From the IMG/VR virus record IMGVR_UViG_3300047157_000032, positions 1 through 39,241 of that record: a stretch of DNA of 39,241 nt; one strand, given 5' to 3'. Shown in pieces: positions 149-39,241 of this stretch (position 1 is the first letter of the stretch; the number at the start of each line of letters is the position of its first letter). This DNA is from a virus. The notes beneath the pieces are model-generated. The model saw only the letters and a list, made by a program, of their open reading frames with translations. It was not told the DNA's origin and did not search any database. Made by a program: the position numbers and the translations under genes.

Positions 149-260
149 ATTACTATAGATTAAATAAATATTCACCTAAAAGGCTTCTCTTAGAAATAAC
201 CTTTATTATCATTCTAATTTTTCCATTTTAGTTGAAACTATAGTACACTAAGGAGTTAGG

Positions 261-659
261 ATGTCTAAAAAAAATAAGGGTTCACCCAACTTATACAAGG
301 GTATGAAGAGTTTAAACCCTAATGGTAGACCAAAAGGCAGTGTCAACAAGTACACAGCCCTAAGTAGAGAGTTAATGTCTAATAGAGGACCGGAGATTGT
401 CCAGAAAGTTATAGACTTAGCACTCGAAGGTGATAGGACTTGTCTTAAAATGTGTATGGATAGAATCATACCTACAACTAAGGCAGTAGAGTTTAGGTCT
501 TCAGAAGATAAAGGTAATGTTATTATAAATGTTGGTGGTCTCGAAGCTAAGAAAATAGAAATAGAAGAGAAAGACCAGAAAGAACTAACATATGAAGATG
601 GTGTTATAATAGAAGAAGCCGATATTGACAAAACAATTGTGAGTATCGGTAATGGCTAA
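261..659 (+). CDS. terS: Terminase small subunit (DNA recognition for packaging)
   Basis: This 132-residue protein begins with a basic stretch containing NPNGRPKGSVNK (residues 19-30), the NPxGRPKG signature often seen in phage small terminases and other DUF5681-type DNA-binding proteins. A helical middle (residues 31-72) and an acidic tail (80-132) follow. Its gene lies directly before the large terminase and overlaps it by 8 bases, the usual pairing. AAGGAG sits just upstream of the ATG. The expected role is to bind the concatemer and load the large subunit. The call rests on position plus the GRPKG motif; overall similarity to well-studied TerS proteins is not obvious. Confidence 0.75.
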   Translation: MSKKNKGSPNLYKGMKSLNPNGRPKGSVNKYTALSRELMSNRGPEIVQKVIDLALEGDRTCLKMCMDRIIPTTKAVEFRSSEDKGNVIINVGGLEAKKIEIEEKDQKELTYEDGVIIEEADIDKTIVSIGNG

Positions 660-1929
660 AGAGTTAGATGTACAACTACATCCTGCACAGCTAGAAATCT
701 TCAATAGCACTGCCCGATTTAAAGTCGTAAGTGCGGGTAGGCGATTTGGAAAGTCCAGACTAGCAGCGTGGATACTTATAATCAAAGCTCTACAGTCGGA
801 AAGTAAGGATGTCTTTTATATAGGTCCTACTTTTCAGCAAGCTAAAGATATTATGTGGAATATGCTTAAGGAACTCCTTCACGGGACAGACCTTATAGAG
901 ACTACCCACGAGAATACAGCTACTATGAAGTTAGTCAATGGTAGGAGAATTAGCTTGAAGGGTTCTGACCGACCAGATACTCTGAGGGGCGTGGGACTTG
1001 CTTATGTTGTTCTTGACGAATATGCTTCTATGAAGGTAGAGGTATGGGAACAGATTATAAGACCTACGCTTTCGGATGTAAAAGGTGGTGCACTCTTTAT
1101 TGGTACGCCTGCAGGTAAGAATCACTTCTATGATTTGTATTTAGAAGCAGAGAAAGATGAAGACTGGGAAGCATTTCAGTATACATCAATAGACAACCCT
1201 CTGATTGACCCTAAAGAAGTAGAAGTAGCAAAAAGAACGATGTCTACACAGGCATTTAGACAAGAATTTGAAGCCTCGTTTGTAAGTTTTACTGGAGGCA
1301 TCTTTAAAAATGAATGGATTAAGTATGATGAAAATGAACCGGAGGAAGGCAATTTTGTTATTGCGGTTGACCCTGCGGGCTTTGAAGCAGTGGAGAAAGA
1401 GCGTGGTCTTAAAGGGAGTAAGTTAGATGAAACAGCTATATCAATCGTTAAAATCCACGGTGATAAGTGGTGGGTCAAAGATATACTCCACGGTAGATGG
1501 AATATTAAAGAAACTGCTTCTAAGATACTACAGGCTGCAATTGAAAATCAAGCAACTACTGTAGGAATAGAATCTGGAGCGTTAAAGAACGCTATCTTAC
1601 CTTATCTACAAGATGAGATGAGAACACAAGGTAGATGGGTAGTCATAACAGATGTAACCCACGGTGGTAAGAAGAAAGCAGACAGAATTACTTGGGCTCT
1701 TCAAGGTAGATTAGAACACGGTAAGATTACATTTAACCGTAATACTAATTGGAATGCAGAGCTAGAGACACAGTTAATAGAATTTCCTAGCAAGGGAACA
1801 CACGATGACATTATCGACTCTCTTGCCTATATAGACCAAGTTAGTGTAGCAGATTTTATGCACACAATTGAAATAGAAGAGGAGTGGAACCATATGATGA
1901 CGTTGCAGGATACTGATGGACGAAAATAA
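652..1929 (+). CDS. terL: Terminase large subunit (packaging ATPase and nuclease)
   Basis: This 425-residue packaging motor has both domains visible. The ATPase domain has Walker A SAGRRFGKS (27-35), Walker B VVLDE with acidic D122/E123, and the coupling motif GTP at 151-153. The RNase H-like nuclease domain has VIAVDPAG (D240), VGIESGA (E307) and HDDIIDSLAY (D385/D386), the three acidic positions expected to hold metal. The length is near the 420-450 residues of compact TerL proteins and shorter than T7 gp19. It overlaps TerS by 8 bases and the portal gene by 14, so the three are probably translationally coupled. A second, partial copy begins at 38383. Confidence 0.95.
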   Translation: MAKELDVQLHPAQLEIFNSTARFKVVSAGRRFGKSRLAAWILIIKALQSESKDVFYIGPTFQQAKDIMWNMLKELLHGTDLIETTHENTATMKLVNGRRISLKGSDRPDTLRGVGLAYVVLDEYASMKVEVWEQIIRPTLSDVKGGALFIGTPAGKNHFYDLYLEAEKDEDWEAFQYTSIDNPLIDPKEVEVAKRTMSTQAFRQEFEASFVSFTGGIFKNEWIKYDENEPEEGNFVIAVDPAGFEAVEKERGLKGSKLDETAISIVKIHGDKWWVKDILHGRWNIKETASKILQAAIENQATTVGIESGALKNAILPYLQDEMRTQGRWVVITDVTHGGKKKADRITWALQGRLEHGKITFNRNTNWNAELETQLIEFPSKGTHDDIIDSLAYIDQVSVADFMHTIEIEEEWNHMMTLQDTDGRK

Positions 1930-3846
1930 ATATCAAGGATTAGCAGGATGGTTAGGCACTCGTTTAGAAGAGTGGAGAAATCACAGAGACTCTAACTATT
2001 TAGATAATTGGGATGAATATTATCGTCTATGGCGTGGTATCTGGAAAGCTAGTGACAAGACTAGGCAGACTGAAAAGTCTAGATTAATATCTCCTGCATT
2101 ACAACAAGCAGTAGAATCATCGGTTGCTGAAATCGAGGAGGCTACATTTGGCAGAGGTAAATGGTTTGATATCAAAGATGATATGCTAGACCAAGACCCC
2201 TCAGACGCTGAGTATGTTAGAAATTTACTGCAAGAAGACTTAGAATCTACAGGTTGTAAAGACGCTTTATGTGAAGTTTTCTTAAACGGTGCTGTATATG
2301 GTACAGGCATTGGAAAAATATCTGTAGAAGAAAAAACTTGGAAATATCCAGTAGAAGTTCCTGTAGAAGGAACAATGACTACAGAAAGAATACTACAAGA
2401 AGAAACTAAGTAGTAGATGTAAAGTTGAGGCTATCAGCCCTAAAGAATTTCTTATTGACCCTTCTGCGGTTAATATACAAGAAGCATTAGGTGTCGCACA
2501 CGAAGTAATTAAGCCTAGACATAGTATTATAGAAGGTATCGAGAATGGTACATATAGAGATATACCTATTGAAGGTGAGCTATAATGTAGACAGATTAAA
2601 AGGTTTTGACCCTGAAGAGTCTAGACCAGATGCTCAGACCAAATTAAAATTACAGAATACTGGGGTAAAGTTCCTGCAAGATTCCTATCTGAAATGAGGA
2701 TCTATGGATGATTTTGAATATAATGACGATGAATTAGTAGAAGCTGTAGTTACTATGGCTAATGATGAATACATATTAAGAGCTGAAAAATCCATTTATG
2801 ATGGAAGACAGACCTTTTGTAAGCTATCAACACGACATCGTCCCAAACAAGTTCTGGGGTAGAGGGGTTTGTGAGAAGGGGTATAACCCGCAAAAAGCAT
2901 TAGACGCTGAAATGAGAGCTCGTATTGACTCGTTAGCTCTGACCACTACACCAATGATGGCTGCAGACGCAACAAGACTACCTCGCGGAGTCAAACTAGA
3001 GGTCAGACCGGGTAAGACTATTCTTACTAATGGCGACCCAAGAGCAGCAATAATGCCATTAACATTAGGTAGCACCGACCAAAATACTTACAATCAAGTA
3101 GCAGTCTGCAGAATATGATACAGATGGGTACAGGGTGCTTCAGATACTCAAGCTAGTGCAGAAAGAGCTACATCTGCTGGTATGTCTATGCAACAATCTT
3201 CTGCAATTAAAAGACAGAAACGTACTCTAATGAATTTCCAAAACACATTCTTAATCCCTATGATTAACAAATGTCTGTGGAGAAAAGATACAGTTTGATG
3301 TAGATAGATATCCTGTTGTAGATTATAAGTTTGTACCTTATTCTACTATGGGCATTATGGCTAAAGAGTTAGAAGCACAGCAAATGGTAAGTTTATTACA
3401 AGCTATACCTAAAGACTCTCCTGCTTTAATATTATATTAGTATCTGTATTTCAGAACTCTAGTATGCACAACAGAGACCAAATTGTACAAGCTCTTATGC
3501 AAGGTATGCAGCCTAATCCACAAAATGAACAGATGCAACAGATGGCTAAAGAACTGCAACTACAGCAGTTACAGGCTGATATACAGAAGACTGTAGCAGA
3601 AGCTCAAGAAGAACAGACTAAAGCTATGAAAACGCAGCAGAAGCAGGAGCAGCACAACCTAGATGAACTTAAGATTCAAGAGAAGTTCCTTAAACTACAG
3701 AAAGATTTAGCTTCTATAGATAAGATGAGAGCAGATACAGAAATACAAAGATAGTGAAACTATGAGAAATATTCCAGAAGATAGAACACTTACAATCTGA
3801 AACATTATTAAATATAGCATCAGCAAAAGAAAAGTTACAAGGATAG
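1916..3846 (+). CDS. Portal (head-tail connector) protein, broken by several frameshifts
   Basis: The reading frame is open to 2413, then the same protein continues through at least six frame changes (near 2410, 2585, 2650, 2800, 3110, 3140 and later) to a stop at 3844-3846, for roughly 640 residues. Recognisable blocks include LISPALQQAVESSVAEIE, SPKEFLIDPSA, DRPFVSYQHDIVPNKFWGRG and QKRTLMNFQNTFLIP, in the order expected for a podovirus portal. The C-terminal part (3464-3754) is a glutamine-rich coiled coil. The portal ring is the packaging channel and tail attachment site. Because it is essential, and all pieces are present in order, the breaks look like sequence errors rather than decay. 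Confidence 0.85.
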
Positions 3847-30085: not shown

Positions 30086-31872
30086 GTTTTACCTACCTTG
30101 TATTCACCGTCCAGTGGACAGTTTAGATTAAAAGTTTTACCTGCTTTGATGATAGCTCCTACCGCTAGACCACCGAAGAAATCAGCTTGGTCATCTCTGA
30201 CCTCACACTGAAACTCATCGTGCACATTGAAACTCATCGTGCACATTCAGTACAAACTTATAGTCTATGTTGTACTGCTTAGCATATGTATCTAGTAACA
30301 CCAACGCTTTCTTCATTATAACCGCACCTGCACTCTGTAGTAGAGTGTTTAGTGCTGAATGTTCTGAGCGTATGTGTAGCTTCCTACCATCTAGTCCTGT
30401 TACCCACCCCTTCTTACTGGAGTCTGCAACCTTACTACGCAAGTGTTTTAACGCGGGAGTATTATCAAGAAAGTTCTTCTTAAGTATACGACCACGCTTT
30501 GCACCACCTCCTGCTACCTCGCCTATCTTAGTATCTCCTGCTCCGTATAGGAACGCATAGATAAAAGTCTTGGCTTGGTCTCTAGTCTGTAGTCCTGCTG
30601 ACTTCTGATTAGCACTGTGTATATCACCGTTAAGTATCTCATCAGTGTATGCCTTATCATCATTCATATAGTGGGCGAGCATTCTAAGCTCTAGTCCACT
30701 AGCATCACAACCCACCAGACTGTATCCATTAGGGACAGTCCATAAGTTACGACAGTCAGCACCATAACCACCCTCGAAACCCCACAAGATGCTACCATCT
30801 TACCGTGTCTAGTCGCAGGGACTTGAGCACAGTTAGGTTTAGAGTGTGTCATTCTACCGGTGACTGCACCGCAAGGGTTTACCCTACCGTGTACTCGACC
30901 AGTATGCTCATCAATAGCTTCTACCCAACTCTTAACCATAGCTATACGCTTGGTCAGTGTAAGGTAATCTACAATCAATTGTGCTTCGGGTATCTTAACA
31001 GTCTTAAGTACCTTCTCATCTACGATAGGGTTTCCCTTCTCAGTAAATGATTTAGGTTTCCAACCGAAGTGCTGGAGGTACTTAGCTATCTGTTGTCGAG
31101 ACCCAAGATTAAACTCTGGGTACTCATAGTATCCCCATTCTAAATATGTATTCCAAGTGTGCACCCTCTATCCAACTGTGCTTGATACCTCTTAGATATA
31201 CTACCATCCTTGTTGTGTGTCTTATCACCGGGATGCTTCAGGTTTATCCACACAGGCAGAGGTTCAAATTTCTTGTGTACCTCGTCCTCTATGTCTAGTA
31301 CCTTCTCCTTCATCTCAGCTAGTAGTTCATAAGCACGCTCCTCATTGAGTATCATACCGTTGTCGGTCTGCTCTCTGATGATGTCAGCAGTCTTATGTTC
31401 TATCTCTACTGCTAGTGAATCTTTGTCACCGGTGACAAGATGGTGATACAAAGCCTTAGTTACCCGCACATCCTGTTGGCAGTAAGTCTAACATCTCGTG
31501 GCTATACTCTTCCCAACCACCTTGATAGTCATCTTTGTAATTGCCTAGTCTCTCACCCCAAGACCTTAAACTATGTCCACCATCAAGGCTAGGGTTATGT
31601 AGTCTGCTAAGTACGAGAGTGTCCCGTAGATTAAAAGCCCAATCCATCCCAGTAAGCCTACGCAAAATAGGAACATCAAAATTAATAATGTTGTGTCCCA
31701 CAAGAGTGTCGACACTTTCTGATGCCAACCATTTTCGAAAAAGTCCATTGGCTTCTCCTCCTATAAAATTATAAACAGTAGACTCACCGTCATCAAGCAT
31801 CGCACAAATGCAATGTACTTTAGTAGCGTTGAGTCCATCAGTTTCTATGTCAAAAAAAGCTGTGTTCATCAT
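30067..31872 (-). CDS. polA: DNA polymerase A (T7-like, with 3'-5' exonuclease), several frameshifts
   Basis: Four consecutive pieces form one polymerase of about 600 residues. The N-terminal exonuclease has FFDIETDGL (D7, E9) and NLRDTLVLSRLHNPSLD, then a damaged YCQQDVRVTKALYHH. The polymerase domain has motif A DASGLELRMLAHYM, motif B RDQAKTFIYAFLYGAG, LDGRKLHIRSEHSALNTLLQ and motif C NVHDEFQ. A 19-bp tandem duplication at 30210-30247 breaks the C-terminal frame, after which EVRDDQADFFGGLAVGAIIK and a stop at 30067 follow. It is a T7-type replicase; no thioredoxin-binding loop is obvious. One palindrome copy (31425-31436) codes VTGD. Confidence 0.9.
30210..30247. repeat. 19-bp tandem duplication inside polA
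   Basis: GAAACTCATCGTGCACATT occurs at 30210-30228 and again at 30229-30247. Removing one copy restores the frame across motif C of the polymerase, so it is either a recent slippage event or a consensus error. Confidence 0.9.
31425..31436. repeat. Palindrome GTCACCGGTGAC, copy 3 (polA)
   Basis: Exact copy, extended to a 16-bp palindrome TTGTCACCGGTGACAA; the coding frame gives V-T-G-D-K-D. Confidence 0.9.
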
Positions 31873-34229: not shown

Positions 34230-34395
34230 TAGTAATATCTTCTTTTTTTAGTACCTCATCATCATCTAAATAAGAATAAGGATTGGAGTGGTATCTACAG
34301 ACACCACACAAGTCTAGATATTGTGTTCTATCAACAGGGTCCTTTGCTTTAGACTCCCATTCAGTGAGCAGGGCGTCACAACATTTACATCGCAT
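34216..34395 (-). CDS. Small zinc-ribbon protein
   Basis: ATG 34395, six bases after GAGGAGG, is a better start than the upstream GTG. The product begins MRCKCCDALLTEWESKAKDP and has YLDLCGVCRYH, so CxC/CxxC pairs (C3, C5 or C6 and a later CxxC) form a zinc ribbon. The tail is acidic (DDDEVLKKEDITIDIG). Such small zinc ribbons are common early phage proteins with regulatory roles; the target is unknown. Its 3' end overlaps a promoter. Confidence 0.65.
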   Translation of the reverse strand: MRCKCCDALLTEWESKAKDPVDRTQYLDLCGVCRYHSNPYSYLDDDEVLKKEDITIDIG

Positions 34396-34675
34396 CGAAA
34401 TCCTCCTCACTTAGTATGTCTTTATTCTCATAGGTGATAGCAGTACCATCATCATTGTAGAATGGTAAGTCTTCGTTAGGTTCATAATCTGTCACTGGTG
34501 ACAAACTTTCTTCCCTACCAATAGACCAGTTAGGGTCTTTCATAGAGTGTATTCTAGCATCAATCTCTGTCATACCTTTAGCCATACAGTTGCCTTCACC
34601 GTCAGTCACAAAGTATGTGTACTTCTGGTCTTCATATATCTCAGCCAATCTACTTATCAGTGGTTTCTTGTGCAT
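34385..34675 (-). CDS. Small early protein, 96 aa
   Basis: The protein starts MHKKPLISRLAEIYEDQKYT and has FVTDGEGNCMAKGMTEIDAR, and later an acidic tail. A palindrome copy (34491-34502) encodes LSPVT here, as it does in the tail tube A gene. No family recognised. It overlaps both neighbours. Confidence 0.55.
   Translation of the reverse strand: MHKKPLISRLAEIYEDQKYTYFVTDGEGNCMAKGMTEIDARIHSMKDPNWSIGREESLSPVTDYEPNEDLPFYNDDGTAITYENKDILSEEDFDAM
34491..34502. repeat. Palindrome variant GTCACTGGTGAC, copy 5 (96-aa gene)
   Basis: One mismatch in the centre; the coding frame gives L-S-P-V-T as in the tail tube A gene. Confidence 0.85.
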
Positions 34676-34802
34676 TTACTAACTCCTCTATTATTTCCAT
34701 AAGTTCTTTAATTTTCTCCTCTAGCTTGTCGTTCTTACGCTTGAGGTCCCTGTTTATTTCTAATGCCTGCTTGTAGACATTCATATTATAGTTAGGATTC
34801 AT
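34650..34802 (-). CDS. Small coiled-coil protein, 50 aa
   Basis: MNPNYNMNVYKQALEINRDL and KRKNDKLEEKIKELMEIIEE form one long charged helix, ending NAQETTDK. Its start overlaps the upstream stop (ATGA) and its end overlaps the next start by 26 bases. The overlaps and a plausible helix are the support; function unknown. Confidence 0.5.
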   Translation of the reverse strand: MNPNYNMNVYKQALEINRDLKRKNDKLEEKIKELMEIIEELVNAQETTDK

Positions 34803-35092
34803 TTCGTGTTCCACCCATCGTTATTTAATTTCTCTTGTAACTCCTTAATATAATGTTCTTGTGCTCTCTGTTCTTCTTGGAGCCAAAGAATTTGATGTTG
34901 TAAGTCCTGCATTATACCTAAATAACTCTGAGGGTCAACATAATAGCCACCTTGAGCCAGATAATCTGCCTGTGGGTGTAATCTCCCGTCTTTTCTAAAG
35001 ATTAACTCTCCGTACTCTTCTTTTATATTGAATTTCCTGTCGAGTTCTTCGTCTAAATCCTTAACATCGCTTGCATATACGCTTATTTCCAT
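34799..35092 (-). CDS. Small early protein with C-terminal coiled coil, 97 aa
   Basis: The first half, EISVYASDVKDLDEELDRKF, is acidic; the middle has PQADYLAQGGYYVDPQSYLG and the last 40 residues, LQHQILWLQEEQRAQEHYIK, form a coiled coil. It precedes and overlaps the small coiled-coil gene, so they may form a pair. No family recognised. Confidence 0.5.
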   Translation of the reverse strand: MEISVYASDVKDLDEELDRKFNIKEEYGELIFRKDGRLHPQADYLAQGGYYVDPQSYLGIMQDLQHQILWLQEEQRAQEHYIKELQEKLNNDGWNTK

Positions 35093-35100
35093 AATATCTC

Positions 35101-35295
35101 CTAAAAATTAACAGTGTATTCGACTCCAGAATCAACCAGAGTCTGTAAATGCCTAGCTTTTCGTCCGTAAACTGTAACTAAGCGGTGATTATCCTCAAAA
35201 TCAGCATCTTGGTAGAGCCTAGTCACTCTTTTCAGCTCTACCGCAGTGTCAATTAGCTTGATTTCCTTGAGAGGGCTCCAATCTCTGCCACTCAT
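35101..35295 (-). CDS. Small early protein, 64 aa
   Basis: MSGRDWSPLKEIKLIDTAVE is followed by KRVTRLYQDADFEDNHRLVT and VYGRKARHLQTLVDSGVEYT. Basic and compact, no recognised family. Its ATG overlaps the upstream TGA (TGATG). Confidence 0.5.
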   Translation of the reverse strand: MSGRDWSPLKEIKLIDTAVELKRVTRLYQDADFEDNHRLVTVYGRKARHLQTLVDSGVEYTVNF

Positions 35296-35618
35296 CAGTC
35301 AATCAAGTCCATATAGGCTCTGATATTGTTCTCAATGAACCAATTCTTGCCCTTGTTGAAGTCTTTGTATAGTTTTCTGGCTTCTTTATAGTCACCCATA
35401 GTGCCTAACTCGATGTGCTCGTGATAAGACTGCATCGTATGGTCATAAATAGCCAGTTCTACCGGATTCATCTCGACAGTGACCCCAGAATATGGGTTCT
35501 GCCTTGTGTTTTTCTCCGGTTCGAGCCACATATGGGCTCCAAAGGGTAGCTTTTCTATATCATAGCCCCAAGATTTGTATAAATCTTCACGTTTTACCGT
35601 CATTTCTTCCTGTGTCAT
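35295..35618 (-). CDS. Small early protein, 107 aa
   Basis: The protein has WGYDIEKLPFGAHMWLEPEK, then NPYSGVTVEMNPVELAIYDH and KEARKLYKDFNKGKNWFIEN. It is preceded by a 21-bp ribosome-site repeat shared with the gene at 35861-36028. The middle phrase SGVTVEMNPVELAIYDHTM looks like a conserved early-phage protein, function unknown to me. Confidence 0.55.
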   Translation of the reverse strand: MTQEEMTVKREDLYKSWGYDIEKLPFGAHMWLEPEKNTRQNPYSGVTVEMNPVELAIYDHTMQSYHEHIELGTMGDYKEARKLYKDFNKGKNWFIENNIRAYMDLID

Positions 35619-35636
35619 AAGACCTCCTAGTCTTTT
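35616..35636 (-). promoter_or_regulatory. Ribosome-site hairpin repeat, copy 1
   Basis: AAGACTAGGAGGTCTT followed by ATG: AAGAC and GTCTT can pair and expose the AGGAG site in the loop. An identical 21-bp copy lies at 36026-36046. The stem also contains the stop codon of the upstream gene. Confidence 0.65.
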
Positions 35637-35860
35637 GGTTTATTTTGTTGTCTCTCGTAAAGTATATCAAACTTCCGAGTAGCTAGATTATCTATCATTT
35701 TCTTGATTCTGTCAAGGTATTTTGTCATAGAATCTAGTTCTTTGTAGTCAACTAATAGATATAGTTGGTGATGGTCCTGAAATTTCTTCTGAAATTCTTC
35801 AAGGGTGACATCAACTGTGCCATCACCCCACGCTTTTTCTACTGATACTGTTTTACTCAC
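35627..35860 (-). CDS. Small early protein, 77 aa
   Basis: GTG start directly after the upstream stop gives MSKTVSVEKAWGDGTVDVTL, then EEFQKKFQDHHQLYLLVDYK and a helical end with KFDILYERQQNKPKD. No recognised family. Confidence 0.5.
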   Translation of the reverse strand: MSKTVSVEKAWGDGTVDVTLEEFQKKFQDHHQLYLLVDYKELDSMTKYLDRIKKMIDNLATRKFDILYERQQNKPKD

Positions 35861-36028
35861 TTAATTTTCTCCTCTATAAATAGCGTGAACCTCAATCTGA
35901 CTCTCTGAAATATGCTCCTCGTCAGATACTTTACGCTTTAAAATTTCGATTGCTTCCGCTTCTGTTTCAGCGTCCACATAATCCCACTGGTTTTTGGTAA
36001 TGTCATACCCTAAATGCCATACTTGCAT
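35861..36028 (-). CDS. Small early protein, 55 aa
   Basis: MQVWHLGYDITKNQWDYVDA is followed by ETEAEAIEILKRKVSDEEHI and ends VHAIYRGEN. It has a strong AGGAGG site inside the hairpin repeat at 36026-36046 and no gap to the next gene. It was too short for common length cut-offs. Function unknown. Confidence 0.6.
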   Translation of the reverse strand: MQVWHLGYDITKNQWDYVDAETEAEAIEILKRKVSDEEHISESQIEVHAIYRGEN

Positions 36029-36046
36029 AAGACCTCCTAGTCTTTT
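36026..36046 (-). promoter_or_regulatory. Ribosome-site hairpin repeat, copy 2
   Basis: The second identical 21-bp copy of the AAGACTAGGAGGTCTT-ATG element, here before the 55-aa gene. One of two places in the window where sequence around a start codon is duplicated exactly. Confidence 0.65.
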
Positions 36047-36058
36047 AATTAAAATTGT

Positions 36059-36070
36059 GTCACCGGTGAC
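36059..36070. repeat. Palindrome GTCACCGGTGAC, copy 6 (intergenic)
   Basis: Exact copy in the short gap between the glycosylase-like gene and the 55-aa gene; flanked by AAAC on the plus strand. Confidence 0.9.
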
Positions 36071-36073
36071 AAA

Positions 36074-36673
36074 CTATTTGATACGCTTCCAAGCCTGCCA
36101 CGTTATAGACTGGAGATGTAACGGGTCCAGCCCTAATGTTTCAGCAGTCATTATATAACACTTTTCTATAAATGTATAGGCTTTTGGTGTTAATGCTTGC
36201 TCTTTATTTGTGGCGGTCCGTCCGATAGCAATAGCAATCGCGTGCCTATCCACTGTAACTCCGGTTCCGTCCGGATACATCATATTCATATAAAAGCGTG
36301 ATGTCTTCGGACCGCTTAGAATCTCCAGTATTTTATCATCAGAGCCATTGCAATCTAGAATCGCTCTAGCTTTACGCTTGTTCGCTCCCATATGTCCGCA
36401 GTCACCGGTTAAGATAAAGTCAACAGCAATCTCTTTGTTCTTCTCCCACTCTTTAAGCGGAGACAATGCGGAGACAATGCCTAAAACTTGATTGACAGTG
36501 ACATCATAATTTTTGAATGACTTTAAAAAACTAGATACCTCAATTCCGAATTGATGAGCTTCTCTATACCAATCATTTTGTTCACTATTCACACTCACTT
36601 TATAGACCTTGAGTATGTTATTCCTGATTTTTGTTCTGGAGTAATCATTTTCTCCTATTCTTACTGTTTCCAT
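36074..36673 (-). CDS. Putative HhH-GPD-type DNA glycosylase/AP-lyase-like protein, 199 aa
   Basis: The protein aligns by eye to the EndoIII/MutY core. SALSPLKEWEKNKEIAVDFI (68-87) matches the LSAQ...NKATAKLY helix; ANKRKARAIL (97-106) matches the SKAxxI segment; LSGPKTSRFYMN (119-130) corresponds to PGVGRKTAN with K123; VTVDRHAIAIAIGR (139-152) corresponds to the VDTHxxR motif with D142, 19 residues after the lysine (18 in EndoIII). No iron-sulfur cysteines are present. If right, it would excise damaged or modified bases, for example from host or phage DNA. This is remote similarity, not a certain call. It has AGGAGA before the ATG. Confidence 0.5.
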   Translation of the reverse strand: METVRIGENDYSRTKIRNNILKVYKVSVNSEQNDWYREAHQFGIEVSSFLKSFKNYDVTVNQVLGIVSALSPLKEWEKNKEIAVDFILTGDCGHMGANKRKARAILDCNGSDDKILEILSGPKTSRFYMNMMYPDGTGVTVDRHAIAIAIGRTATNKEQALTPKAYTFIEKCYIMTAETLGLDPLHLQSITWQAWKRIK

Positions 36674-36772
36674 ATAATCTCCTATGGTATGTGTTAATTG
36701 TGGGCTCCATATCTTCGATTCTGGAGGACTTCTCTATCTCACTAAGGCTTAGCCCTTGCTTGATTTGTCCCA

Positions 36773-36801
36773 ATGATATATTGATTAAATTGTATAGTCA
36801 A
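36773..36801 (-). promoter_or_regulatory. Sigma70-like promoter for the small early genes
   Basis: On the minus strand TTGACT (36796-36801), a 17-base spacer and TATCAT (36773-36778) resemble the consensus. The palindrome copy at 36819-36830 lies about 18 bases upstream of the -35 box, a good place for a regulator. Confidence 0.55.
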
Positions 36802-36818
36802 TGACTAGTTGACAATCT

Positions 36819-36830
36819 GTCACTGGTGAC
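36819..36830. repeat. Palindrome variant GTCACTGGTGAC, copy 7 (upstream of early promoter)
   Basis: One mismatch in the centre; between the terminator of the 187-aa gene and the promoter at 36773-36801. Confidence 0.85.
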
Positions 36831-36842
36831 AAACTCTAGACC

Positions 36843-36866
36843 AAAAAAAACCCGCACAAGGCGGGC
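36843..36866 (-). terminator. Leftward intrinsic terminator after the 187-aa gene
   Basis: On the minus strand CCCGC pairs with GCGGG (36851-36865) with a CTTGT loop, followed by eight T residues (36843-36850). It isolates the 187-aa gene as its own transcription unit. Confidence 0.85.
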
Positions 36867-36884
36867 TCTTTAGGTTGCTAAAGT

Positions 36885-37448
36885 TTAAGCAGCTTTTTTG
36901 ACTTTCATATTAACAGTCTCAATAAGTATCTGCGCCTTGAGGTCTAGCATTTGTTTTTCGTACTCCTCTTTGGACATATCGGAATTCTCTCCTAATACCT
37001 TTTCCTGCCAGTCTCCTACAATCTCACTGATTGTCTTCTCTGGCTTCGGTGTAGGCTCCGCCTTAACTAAACAGAATTCTCTCAATTTACCTCTATCTGC
37101 TTCGGTGTGAGTACCTCTCTCCGTAATGTCTTTATCATTGACTAAGCGGATAGTGTAGCTGTGAGTATCTGGTTCCGCGTTGTCTCTAGCATTCAAGATA
37201 GATTCTTGCGTCTTCTTCTTAGCTATGAGCTTCTGCATCTTGTGCACTCTGCCCTTAAACTCTTTGAGGTCTTCATTCTCTAGAGTTGTGAGGTTCTTGT
37301 TCATAGCCTTTAAGAATGTTTCCTTGAATTTACTGTTAGTTGCTACAGTCTTCAAGGTCTCTGTGACTTGACCCTCTGCCTTGCGAATGTTACCTAGAGT
37401 GTCAATAAAGTTTGCTATCTGTTGTGTATCTGTCATTTTATTTTTCAT
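36885..37448 (-). CDS. First leftward gene, 187-aa early protein of unknown function
   Basis: The protein is charged and helical: TDTQQIANFIDTLGNIRKAE, KGRVHKMQKLIAKKKTQESI and DMSKEEYEKQMLDLKAQIL, with an alanine/lysine end. A middle part (residues 95-130) is more beta-like. It has its own terminator just after the stop and lies next to the divergent control region, with AAGGA before the ATG. Being the first gene transcribed to the left, it is a candidate host-takeover or regulatory protein. No family recognised. Confidence 0.6.
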   Translation of the reverse strand: MKNKMTDTQQIANFIDTLGNIRKAEGQVTETLKTVATNSKFKETFLKAMNKNLTTLENEDLKEFKGRVHKMQKLIAKKKTQESILNARDNAEPDTHSYTIRLVNDKDITERGTHTEADRGKLREFCLVKAEPTPKPEKTISEIVGDWQEKVLGENSDMSKEEYEKQMLDLKAQILIETVNMKVKKAA

Positions 37449-37867: not shown

Positions 37868-37991
37868 ATTACTATAGATATAAAAAACAAAGATTCACCT
37901 AAAAGGCTTCTCTTAGAAATAACCTTTATAATCATTCTAATTTATTCCATTTTAGTTGAAACTATAGTATAACTTTAGGAGAGTAAATAGG

Positions 37992-38390
37992 ATGTCTAAA
38001 AAGAACAAGGGTTCGCCTAATCTTTACAAGGGTATGAAGAGTTTAAACCCTAACGGTAGACCCAAAGGCTCAGTAAACAAGTTTACAGCACTGAGCAGAG
38101 AGTTGATGTCTAACAAAGGACCAGAGATTGTCCAAAAAGTTATAGACTTAGCACTCGAAGGTGACAGGACCTGTCTTAAGATGTGTATGGATAGAATTAT
38201 TCCTACAACTAAGTCAGTAGAGTTTAGGTCATCAGAAGATAAAGGTAATGTAATTATTAATGTTGGTGGTCTCGAAGCTAAGAAAATAGAAATAGAAGAG
38301 AAAGACCAGAAAGAACTAACATATGAAGATGGTGTTATAATAGAAGAAGCTGATATTGACAAAACAATTGTGAGTATCGGTAATGGCTAG
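37992..38390 (+). CDS. terS: Terminase small subunit, second copy
   Basis: The 132-residue product differs from the copy at 261-659 at three positions (Y31F, R42K, A75S). Many synonymous differences lie in the first 230 bases, while the last part is nearly identical. The ribosome site and the overlap with TerL are the same. The duplication reflects the ends of the molecule, not a second functional gene. Confidence 0.8.
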   Translation: MSKKNKGSPNLYKGMKSLNPNGRPKGSVNKFTALSRELMSNKGPEIVQKVIDLALEGDRTCLKMCMDRIIPTTKSVEFRSSEDKGNVIINVGGLEAKKIEIEEKDQKELTYEDGVIIEEADIDKTIVSIGNG

Positions 38391-39241
38391 AGAGTTAGAT
38401 GTACAATTACATCCTGCACAGCTAGAAATCTTCAATAGCACTGCCCGATTTAAAGTCGTAAGTGCGGGTAGGCGATTTGGAAAGTCCAGACTAGCAGCGT
38501 GGATACTTATAATCAAAGCTCTACAGTCGGAAAGTAAGGATGTCTTTTATATAGGTCCTACTTTTCAGCAAGCTAAAGATATTATGTGGAATATGCTCAA
38601 GGAACTGTTGCACAATACAGACCTTATAGAGACTACCCACGAGAATACAGCTACTATGAAGTTAGTCAATGGTAGGAGAATTAGCTTGAAGGGTTCTGAC
38701 CGACCAGATACTCTGAGGGGCGTGGGACTTGCTTATGTTGTTCTTGACGAATATGCTTCTATGAAGGTAGAGGTATGGGAACAGATTATAAGACCTACGC
38801 TTTCGGATGTAAAAGGTGGTGCGCTCTTTATTGGGACTCCAGCCGGGAAGAATCACTTTTATGATTTGTATTTAGAGGCAGAATAAAGATGAAGACTGGG
38901 AAGCATTTCAGTATACATCAATAGACAACCCTCTGATTGACCCTAAAGAAGTAGAAGTAGCAAAAAGAACGATGTCTACACAGGCATTTAGACAAGAATT
39001 TGAAGCCTCGTTTGTAAGTTTTACTGGAGGCATCTTTAAAAATGAATGGATTAAGTATGATGAAAATGAACCGGAGGAAGGCAATTTTGTTATTGCGGTT
39101 GACCCTGCGGGCTTTGAAGCAGTGGAGAAAGAGCGTGGTCTTAAAGGGAGTAAGTTAGATGAAACAGCTATATCAATCGTTAAAATCCACGGTGATAAGT
39201 GGTGGGTCAAAGATATACTCCACGGTAGATGGAATATTAAA
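38383..39241 (+). CDS. terL: Terminase large subunit, second copy, cut off by window end
   Basis: The 5' part is the same protein as at 652-1929 with K3R and G78N. An extra base around 38884 makes a premature TAA after LYLEAE, where the first copy reads LYLEAEKDED; beyond this point the DNA matches the first copy again to the window end. Walker A and B regions are intact. The frameshift is probably a sequence error. Confidence 0.8.

What the first reader, a model, noticed from the sequence alone, without database searches (positions are those of the whole stretch)
36074..36673. Possible phage-encoded HhH-GPD DNA glycosylase
Four segments line up with EndoIII/MutY: the LSA...N-K-x-x-A helix, KAxxIL, the K-T lysine (K123) and VDxH aspartate (D142) at nearly the same spacing, without the iron-sulfur loop. 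The gene heads the small early gene run, so an early role in base excision or in recognition of modified DNA (counter-defence or host DNA attack) is attractive.
Basis: partly seen in the sequence, partly recalled or inferred. Interest (0 to 1): 0.5.

Follow-up and report, generated by a model that had tools for sequence, protein, structure and literature searches.

The report
Phage OGG-like DNA glycosylase, genome-end encoded
A phage gene of unknown function looks like an enzyme that cuts damaged or altered bases out of DNA, and in several unrelated phages and some linear plasmids the gene sits near the very end of the DNA, which hints at a job at the start of invasion.

Summary
The ORF at 36074-36673 (-), 199 aa, is a real gene of Pfam DUF7178 (PF23802, "unknown function"; E 1.5e-35). 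A confident model (pLDDT 94.3) matches HhH-GPD DNA glycosylases, best the 8-oxoguanine enzymes (AGOG first in Foldseek; OGG2 first by Z). Profile comparison aligns K123 and D142 with the catalytic Lys and Asp of AGOG and endonuclease III, and Q188/W192 with pocket residues; 0 of 200 column shuffles reach each score. K is kept in 225 of 225 and D in 224 of 225 homologous ORFs. The branch is nearer to OGG2/AGOG/OGG1 than to EndoIII/MutY and belongs to none of them. Substrate (an altered purine) is inferred. The gene lies within 7% of an end in 12 of 13 linear phage records fetched (exceptions are listed elsewhere) and within 2.5 kb of an end in 7 of 9 Streptomyces plasmids; the domain also occurs inside large phage proteins. 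This favours a role at DNA entry: counter-defence, or repair of the incoming genome. Some records already say "glycosylase". Verdict: new variant of a known enzyme kind.

The parts
36074..36673 (-). DUF7178 (PF23802) gene, 199 aa, predicted HhH-GPD, OGG-like DNA glycosylase/AP lyase
36305..36307 (-). codon of K123, predicted catalytic lysine (Schiff base)
   Evidence: K in 225 of 225 homologous ORFs; aligned with AGOG and EndoIII Lys
36293..36295 (-). codon of F127 (K+4), predicted base-stacking residue, as F146 of Pab-AGOG (K142+4)
   Evidence: F in 225 of 225; AGOG role from PMC9638937 passages
36248..36250 (-). codon of D142, predicted catalytic aspartate
   Evidence: D in 224 of 225, one row unaligned
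36110..36112 (-). codon of Q188, position of Gln315 in OGG1 and Asp218/Asp194 in AGOG/OGG2
36098..36100 (-). codon of W192, position of Trp222/Trp198 in AGOG/OGG2 and Phe319 in OGG1
36773..36801 (-). promoter-like TTGACT-17-TATCAT upstream of the gene (consensus match only)
   Evidence: 13 such sites in the region against 9.9 expected, so weak
36843..36865 (-). terminator-like hairpin CCCGC-CTTGT-GCGGG then eight T, between the 187-aa ORF and this gene
   Evidence: my reading; not listed by the scanner
36818..36831 (.). palindrome TGTCACYGGTGACA upstream of the gene, kept in relatives
36058..36071 (.). palindrome TGTCACCGGTGACA just after the stop codon, kept in relatives

Best explanation
The gene encodes a small HhH-GPD DNA glycosylase with AP-lyase chemistry. 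It would flip an oxidised or otherwise altered purine into a pocket lined by F127, W192 and Q188, let K123 (with D142) attack C1' of its sugar, release the base and nick the strand by beta-elimination. It is a mobile-element branch on the OGG2/AGOG/OGG1 side of the superfamily and is probably made among the first proteins after DNA entry. Shown here: gene, family, fold prediction, alignment and invariance of the catalytic and pocket residues, and recurrent genome-end location in the records looked at. Inferred: that it is active, that its base is an 8-oxoguanine-like purine, early timing, and purpose. My sub-estimates: HhH-GPD fold 0.96; active Lys-dependent glycosylase/lyase 0.85; 8-oxoG or a near relative as substrate 0.45; acting at DNA entry 0.6.
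For: Model of pLDDT 94.3, pTM 0.88 from 63 sequences. Foldseek best hit Pa-AGOG, E 5.2e-3, prob 1.00, then TM1821, OGG1 and MjOgg. VIA Z 11.7 for TM1821 and MjOgg, 11.4 SsOgg, 9.8 EndoIII, 9.7 AGOG; the first 39 rows are all HhH DNA glycosylases or homologues. hhalign P 6.4e-5 to 8.1e-5 (AGOG), 1.9e-5 (OGG2), 1.6e-3 to 2.1e-3 (EndoIII-like); 0 of 200 shuffles reach any; reversed AGOG and EndoIII-like profiles score 15.4 and 12.5 against 38.5 and 28.8. K123 and F127 in 225 of 225, D142, Q188 and W192 in 224 of 225 ORFs. Asp218 (AGOG) and Asp194 (OGG2) are described as structurally equivalent to Gln315 of OGG1, and Trp222/Trp198/Phe319 as the stacking residue (PMC3397491 passages). Position: 12 of 13 linear phage records within 7% of an end; 7 of 9 plasmids within 2.5 kb of an end.
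Against: The window protein passes no Pfam model but DUF7178, and no glycosylase model is passed among the families shown for 63 members (25 of 36 in Pfam; 25 of 29 in NCBIfam). No Foldseek PDB hit has E <= 0.001, and the tool warns that Z up to 13 can arise among helical proteins. The OGG2 local alignment starts after K123 and its register would put K one residue off; forced to global mode the OGG2 alignment is poor (P 0.014) and AGOG and EndoIII-like give P 2.6e-4 and 5.2e-4. The HhH hairpin is two residues shorter than LPGVGRK. The AGOG residue that reads N7-H (Q24/Q31) has no identified counterpart, so 8-oxoG specificity is a guess. K-D distance was not measured. Rows were gathered by similarity and many are near copies. 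The 7% limit was chosen after seeing positions and the 13 records were hand-picked; listed but unfetched records include some further from an end (Streptomyces Sentinel 11% and Spernnie 14%; virus Rctr197k 24%, two further Siovirus records about 21%). Plasmid typing of 9 plasmids non-mobilizable.
Confidence: 0.8

Rival explanations
1. Role rival A: counter-defence or host take-over. The enzyme, made or injected first, excises a base that marks or protects DNA, or nicks host DNA, so that host defence or replication is disabled.
For: Genome-end position in 12 of 13 linear phage records fetched and 7 of 9 Streptomyces plasmids; domain embedded in a very large phage protein with a methyltransferase domain and an ART-PolyVal-like stretch and in the 753-aa gp98 of phage Alice, three genes after a head fiber gene. 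Polyvalent proteins are described as injected with phage DNA (PMC7824862 passages), and plasmid leading regions as encoding diverse anti-defence systems (PMC11541004, title and start of abstract in listing).
Against: No defence target is known. The ART-PolyVal match is below Pfam's cut-off (23.3 against 31.2 bits). The leading-region paper has no 'glycosylase' in its main text. Six small neighbouring ORFs of the window (34385-37448) gave no PHROG match of known function, so no known anti-restriction neighbour was seen. Position exceptions as listed under the best explanation.
Confidence: 0.45
2. Role rival B: repair. The phage carries its own 8-oxoguanine-type glycosylase to mend oxidised bases in the incoming genome before replication, as T4 denV does for pyrimidine dimers (denV recalled).
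For: Pocket residues match 8-oxoG enzymes; several carriers infect sunlit-water bacteria (Synechococcus, Prochlorococcus, Roseobacter); early expression would suit repair before replication.
Against: Phages of soil actinobacteria (Mycobacterium, Streptomyces, Rhodococcus, Gordonia) carry it as well; the N7-H reader of AGOG is not identified; repair does not explain the subtelomeric plasmid location.
Confidence: 0.35
3. An inactive, binding-only HhH-GPD protein that recognises altered or bent DNA.
For: HhH glycosylase homologues of the Mag2 type appear (their lack of activity is recalled).
Against: K123 and D142 are invariant across distant members, which a binder would not need.
Confidence: 0.08
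4. Not a glycosylase: a generic helical protein whose similarity is a fold coincidence.
For: Weak single-sequence scores; helical folds give middling Z by chance (note).
Against: Profile tests against two separate families (EndoIII-like, AGOG) align the same catalytic residues, above all shuffles.
Confidence: 0.03

Closest known systems
AGOG (Pfam PF09171), archaeal 8-oxoguanine DNA glycosylase, e.g. Pa-AGOG 1xqo/1xqp
   Same: Top Foldseek hit; catalytic K and D, F at K+4 and W of the C-terminal pocket align; local PLHL-x-x-x-x-W similarity
   Different: Gln in place of Asp at W-4; no counterpart found for the N7-H reader Gln24/31; 199 against 256 aa; PF09171 does not match the window
OGG2 (Pfam PF22175 Ogg-HhH), e.g. 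MjOgg, TM1821
   Same: Highest Z (11.7); best hhalign P 1.9e-5; D142 and W192 align
   Different: Gln for Asp at W-4; register one residue off at K; global alignment poor; PF22175 is not among the 25 of 36 Pfam families shown for 63 members
OGG1 (human/bacterial)
   Same: Gln four residues before the stacking aromatic, as Gln315/Phe319; Z about 8
   Different: No N-terminal extra domain (alignment starts at OGG1 residue 116); Trp instead of Phe
Endonuclease III / MutY
   Same: K123 and D142 align with the Lys and Asp of Nth; LS helix and KAxxI align
   Different: No iron-sulfur cluster; weaker local profile score than AGOG or OGG2. MutY was not compared by profile
DUF7178 proteins called glycosylase in phage records (e.g. 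Shagrat gp113, S-CRES3 gp63, MK4 gp76)
   Same: Same family; residues shared by the members aligned
   Different: Names are annotations, no test seen; the larger part of the rows listed say 'hypothetical protein'
Brig1/Brig3 anti-phage DNA glycosylases
   Same: DNA glycosylases in the phage-bacterium conflict (PMC11078745 and PMC13160076, listings and passages)
   Different: Host-encoded defence against modified phage DNA; no relation to this fold was tested here

Membership tests
Pfam PF23802 (DUF7178) | score over curated cut-off | tested here: met
   123.3 bits against 27
HhH-GPD DNA glycosylase superfamily | two-domain all-helical fold | tested here: met
   AF2 pLDDT 94.3 (a short N-terminal hairpin E3-6/E9-12 apart); 48 of 50 VIA rows shown are HhH DNA glycosylases or homologues
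HhH-GPD DNA glycosylase superfamily | catalytic Asp after the HhH motif, at the start of the next helix | tested here: met
   D142 aligned with Asp of Nth and AGOG, 224 of 225
HhH-GPD DNA glycosylase superfamily | K123 and D142 close in space | not testable with these tools
   no coordinates released
EndoIII-type hairpin | canonical hairpin sequence LPGVGxK | tested here: not met
   LSGPK, two residues shorter than Nth; AGOG is also described as differing in its HhH-GPD motif (PMC9638937 passage), so this does not define the superfamily
Pfam PF00730 (HhH-GPD sequence model) | score over curated cut-off | tested here: not met
   only PF23802 listed at E <= 10 for the window protein
Bifunctional (Lys) glycosylase/lyase | Lys at the hairpin end | tested here: met
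   K in 225 of 225
Bifunctional (Lys) glycosylase/lyase | base release and strand nicking | not testable with these tools
   needs an enzyme assay
EndoIII / MutY | C-terminal four-Cys iron-sulfur cluster | tested here: not met
   three Cys in all (sequence)
AGOG | PF09171 score | tested here: not met
   no match in the window at E <= 10
AGOG / OGG2 | stacking Trp with Asp four residues before it | tested here: not met
   Trp present (W192), Asp replaced by Gln (Q188, 224 of 225), the OGG1 residue
AGOG / OGG2 / OGG1 | residue reading N7-H of 8-oxoG | tested here: inconclusive
   no counterpart could be assigned

The most novel reading that the evidence does not exclude
DUF7178 is an entry-end DNA glycosylase: a mobile-element enzyme class, shared by tailed phages of many lineages and Streptomyces linear plasmids, encoded in the DNA that enters or is expressed first or carried in large phage proteins, which uses 8-oxoguanine-glycosylase chemistry as a weapon or shield in the conflict with host defence. 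It would be the mobile-element mirror image of the host-encoded Brig glycosylase defence.
Probability: 0.35. Interest if true: 0.8.

Novelty: new variant of a known kind. Interest (0 to 1): 0.5.

Why it matters
It turns a widespread Pfam family of unknown function into a testable enzyme with named catalytic and pocket residues, in laboratory-tractable phages (mycobacteriophages, roseophage SIO1, cyanophages) and in the linear plasmid SLP2. If the genome-end pattern reflects entry, it points to base excision as a counter-defence or take-over chemistry. If it is repair, it would be a phage 8-oxoguanine-type glycosylase outside the known OGG branches.

Tried and rejected
First fold job with 12 close homologues gave a poor model (pLDDT 63.9); the deeper alignment fixed this. 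phmmer and a 63-sequence profile against PDB sequences found nothing significant. NCBIfam and PADLOC scans of 63 members gave only low-scoring, scattered matches (best listed E 0.0014, an unrelated DsrK model, and 0.0079; one member hit PRK13280.1-2 N-glycosylase/DNA lyase at 0.028). hhalign against the single Nth sequence was too weak, so family profiles were built. A genome-contig scan with A1 found no relative; PF23802 matched 0 of 299 genomes of one bacterial family and 0 of 395 of its phylum, but nothing rang in the controls, so absence from bacteria is not shown. Two viral scans found no relatives. A role in thymine hypermodification was considered from memory and not tested; a thymidylate synthase lies near the homologue in P12053L and SIO1, and none was searched for in the window. 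No paper in the library holds 'DUF7178'; the polyvalent-protein paper has no 'glycosylase' in its main text, nor has the leading-region paper. Literature was searched only, in a library that lacks most subscription journals; papers were seen as listings and passages, none read whole.

Full report
Observation. The ORF at 36074-36673 on the minus strand encodes 199 aa. It matches Pfam PF23802 (DUF7178) at 123.3 bits against a cut-off of 27, E 1.5e-35, and phrog_3842 at 2.6e-37. The first scan gave 12 viral loci, 11 of them full length. In 50,697 phage records 118 have a match at 1e-5 and 125 at 0.01; with SIO1 gp9 as query 137 match at 0.001. Organism names include phages of Mycobacterium, Streptomyces, Gordonia, Microbacterium, Rhodococcus, Roseobacter, Lentibacter, Synechococcus and Prochlorococcus.

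A plain pairwise alignment with E. coli Nth places K123 on its Lys and D142 on its Asp (K-D spacing 19 against 18), with KA on KA and a hairpin two residues shorter (LSGPK against LPGVGRK). There are three Cys, so no four-Cys cluster. The gene is second in its strand run: a 187-aa ORF (36885-37448) precedes it and is kept in a relative (190 aa in L002). A terminator-like hairpin (my reading) and a promoter-like match lie between the two.

Fold. With 12 close relatives the model was poor (pLDDT 63.9). With 63 diverse sequences (A3, 25-87% identity to the window protein) it is confident (pLDDT 94.3, pTM 0.88). Foldseek puts Pa-AGOG first (E 5.2e-3, prob 1.00), then TM1821, OGG1 and MjOgg; none has E <= 0.001. 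VIA-align on Foldseek's top chains gives Z 11.7 for TM1821 (rmsd 3.7, 171 aligned) and MjOgg (3.7, 169), 11.4 SsOgg (3.7, 164), 9.8 EndoIII (3.8, 159), 9.7 AGOG (4.5, 179). Of 50 rows shown 48 are HhH DNA glycosylases or homologues; the other two are DUF2419. The tool warns that Z below 13 can be common among helical folds, so this alone is not proof.

Sequence profiles. I built profiles of DUF7178 (78 sequences, A2 plus A3), AGOG (31 rows, the seed and L246 being the same gene), EndoIII-like proteins (Nth plus 30) and OGG2 (27 rows from 30 loci). hhalign gives P 8.1e-5 for AGOG (6.4e-5 after column trimming), 2.1e-3 for EndoIII-like (1.6e-3) and 1.9e-5 for OGG2. In each case 0 of 200 column shuffles reach the score; reversed AGOG and EndoIII-like profiles score 15.4 and 12.5 against 38.5 and 28.8. 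The AGOG alignment puts K123, F127, D142, Q188 and W192 on AGOG's Lys, Phe, Asp, Asp and Trp. Against this reading: the OGG2 alignment covers D142, Q188 and W192 but begins after K123 and would place K one residue off; and in global mode P is 2.6e-4 for AGOG, 5.2e-4 for EndoIII-like but only 0.014 for OGG2, with a poor N-terminal half.

Invariance. In A2 (25 sequences) and A3 (63) both K123 and D142 are invariant. In 225 homologous ORFs from the loci held at that point K123 is K in 225 and F127 F in 225; D142, Q188, T191, W192, W35 and Y36 are kept in 224 each, one row unaligned in each case; H144 is H in 213 and W in 11. I skipped loci fetched twice by the same scans, but copies of one phage from two collections remain. 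The row unaligned at D142 is phage Alice gp98, where a separate alignment shows K, F, D, Q and W. Four Streptomyces plasmid proteins and the domain in the very large phage protein keep these five too. Rows are related and were found by similarity, so this is not independent sampling.

Pocket. In Pab-AGOG the base is sandwiched by F146 (K142+4) and W212 and held by Q24, W62, K149, P172, D174 and D208 (PMC9638937 passages). PMC3397491 passages say that Asp194 of OGG2 and Asp218 of AGOG are structurally equivalent to Gln315 of OGG1, and that Trp198, Trp222 and Phe319 stack on the base. DUF7178 thus combines the Gln of OGG1 with the Trp of OGG2/AGOG. The N7-H reader is not identified, so 8-oxoG is a guess, not a result.

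Where the gene sits. I fetched 17 phage records with a free-standing gene, picked by hand from the hit lists for diversity; 4 are labelled circular. Of the 13 linear ones the gene is within 7% of an end in 12; SIO1, at 24%, is the exception. In 9 lineages (grouping mine) 8 have all fetched members within 7%, p 1.2e-6 if 14% is chance. The 7% limit was set after seeing the positions, so p is only a guide. Listed but unfetched records include exceptions: Streptomyces Sentinel and Spernnie at about 11% and 14%, virus Rctr197k at about 24% and two further Siovirus records at about 21%; their topology was not seen. The circular S-CRES3 carries it mid-record. In two cyanophages annotated with an RNA polymerase the gene lies upstream of that gene. 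In cluster A mycobacteriophages the early lytic promoter Pleft is at the right end (PMC5712189 passages), and HINdeR and Rockstar, which I recall as cluster A, carry the gene there. No expression data for DUF7178 itself were seen.

Plasmids. The Streptomyces phage protein finds 9 Streptomyces plasmids (best E 3e-53, 45-55% identity); in 7 of 9 the gene is within 2.5 kb of a record end, in the other two about 13 kb and 57 kb away. The four fetched are linear, SLP2 among them, and all four match PF23802 at 1.7e-66 or better. Eight of nine are typed non-mobilizable, which does not favour a transfer role.

Large proteins. A frame of at least 3051 aa in a Rhodobacteraceae phage (it continues across the record's origin) carries DUF7178 (E 5.1e-27) with a methyltransferase domain and an ART-PolyVal-like stretch below cut-off. 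Phage Alice gp98 (753 aa), three genes after a head fiber protein, carries it too. BFVD shows matches in other large phage proteins. Polyvalent proteins are described as injected with phage DNA (PMC7824862 passages); that these two are injected is not shown.

Mechanism and role. Best reading: a Lys-dependent glycosylase/AP lyase of the OGG side of the HhH-GPD superfamily, acting on an altered purine. Purpose is open: counter-defence or take-over (0.45) or repair of incoming DNA (0.35). Position near genome and plasmid ends and presence in large, polyvalent-like proteins tip me to the first.

Known or new. Some records already name it glycosylase, DNA glycosylase, N-glycosylase or N-glycosylase/DNA lyase, and one glycosyltransferase. 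No paper in the library holds DUF7178. What seems new here is the placement by profile and pocket, and the genome-end and plasmid-end pattern; that claim rests only on the searches listed under Tried and rejected.

The window phage. Its primase is nearest, among the phage records, to Pelagibacter phages HTVC104P, HTVC115P and HTVC103P (46% identity). It is a virus record of 39241 bases; its host is unknown.

Noticed in passing
window 15298, 25723, 31424, 33340, 34490, 36058, 36818, 37587: Palindrome TGTCACYGGTGACA exact at eight places, seven of them in the non-structural half; 19 strand matches with up to 3 mismatches against 4.5 expected (0 of 100 shuffles). Kept at matching places in relatives (17 of 338 loci hold it). 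Could be an operator or stoperator-like set; some copies lie inside genes.
   Followed up: partly
window 248-1500 and 37979-39231: The two ends of the window repeat the terminase start, nearly but not fully identical (mean column identity 98%), with a one-base insertion that breaks the second large-terminase frame: a circular genome joined from two variants, or an assembly artefact.
   Followed up: partly
window 30215-31872 and 1916-3118: Genes that look like DNA polymerase and portal (my reading) appear as several neighbouring frames, as if by frameshifts.
   Followed up: no
L054 3299-5557 (phage Alice gp98, phrog_2878): DUF7178 domain inside a 753-aa protein near the capsid genes of a Bixzunavirus; candidate virion or injected protein.
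   Followed up: partly
L338 (OP947163.1, 1-9155): Phage frame of at least 3051 aa with DUF7178, methyltransferase and ART-PolyVal-like stretches, annotated only as methyltransferase.
   Followed up: partly
Microbacterium and Rhodococcus large phages (rows H8, H24, H35, H91): Two places per record match the query, so paralogues of DUF7178 seem to exist in one genome.
   Followed up: no
archaeal genomes, second matches (profile about 157-243): Proteins in frames of about 300 aa match only the C-terminal third of the AGOG model; possibly another related glycosylase.
   Followed up: no
H95 / H146, Rhodococcus phage Madraxi gp106: DUF7178 homologue annotated as glycosyltransferase, probably a slip for glycosylase.
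   Followed up: no
window 36885-37448 (-): 187-aa ORF just upstream, kept in L002, without a PHROG match at 0.01; it precedes the DUF7178 gene in the minus-strand run.
   Followed up: partly
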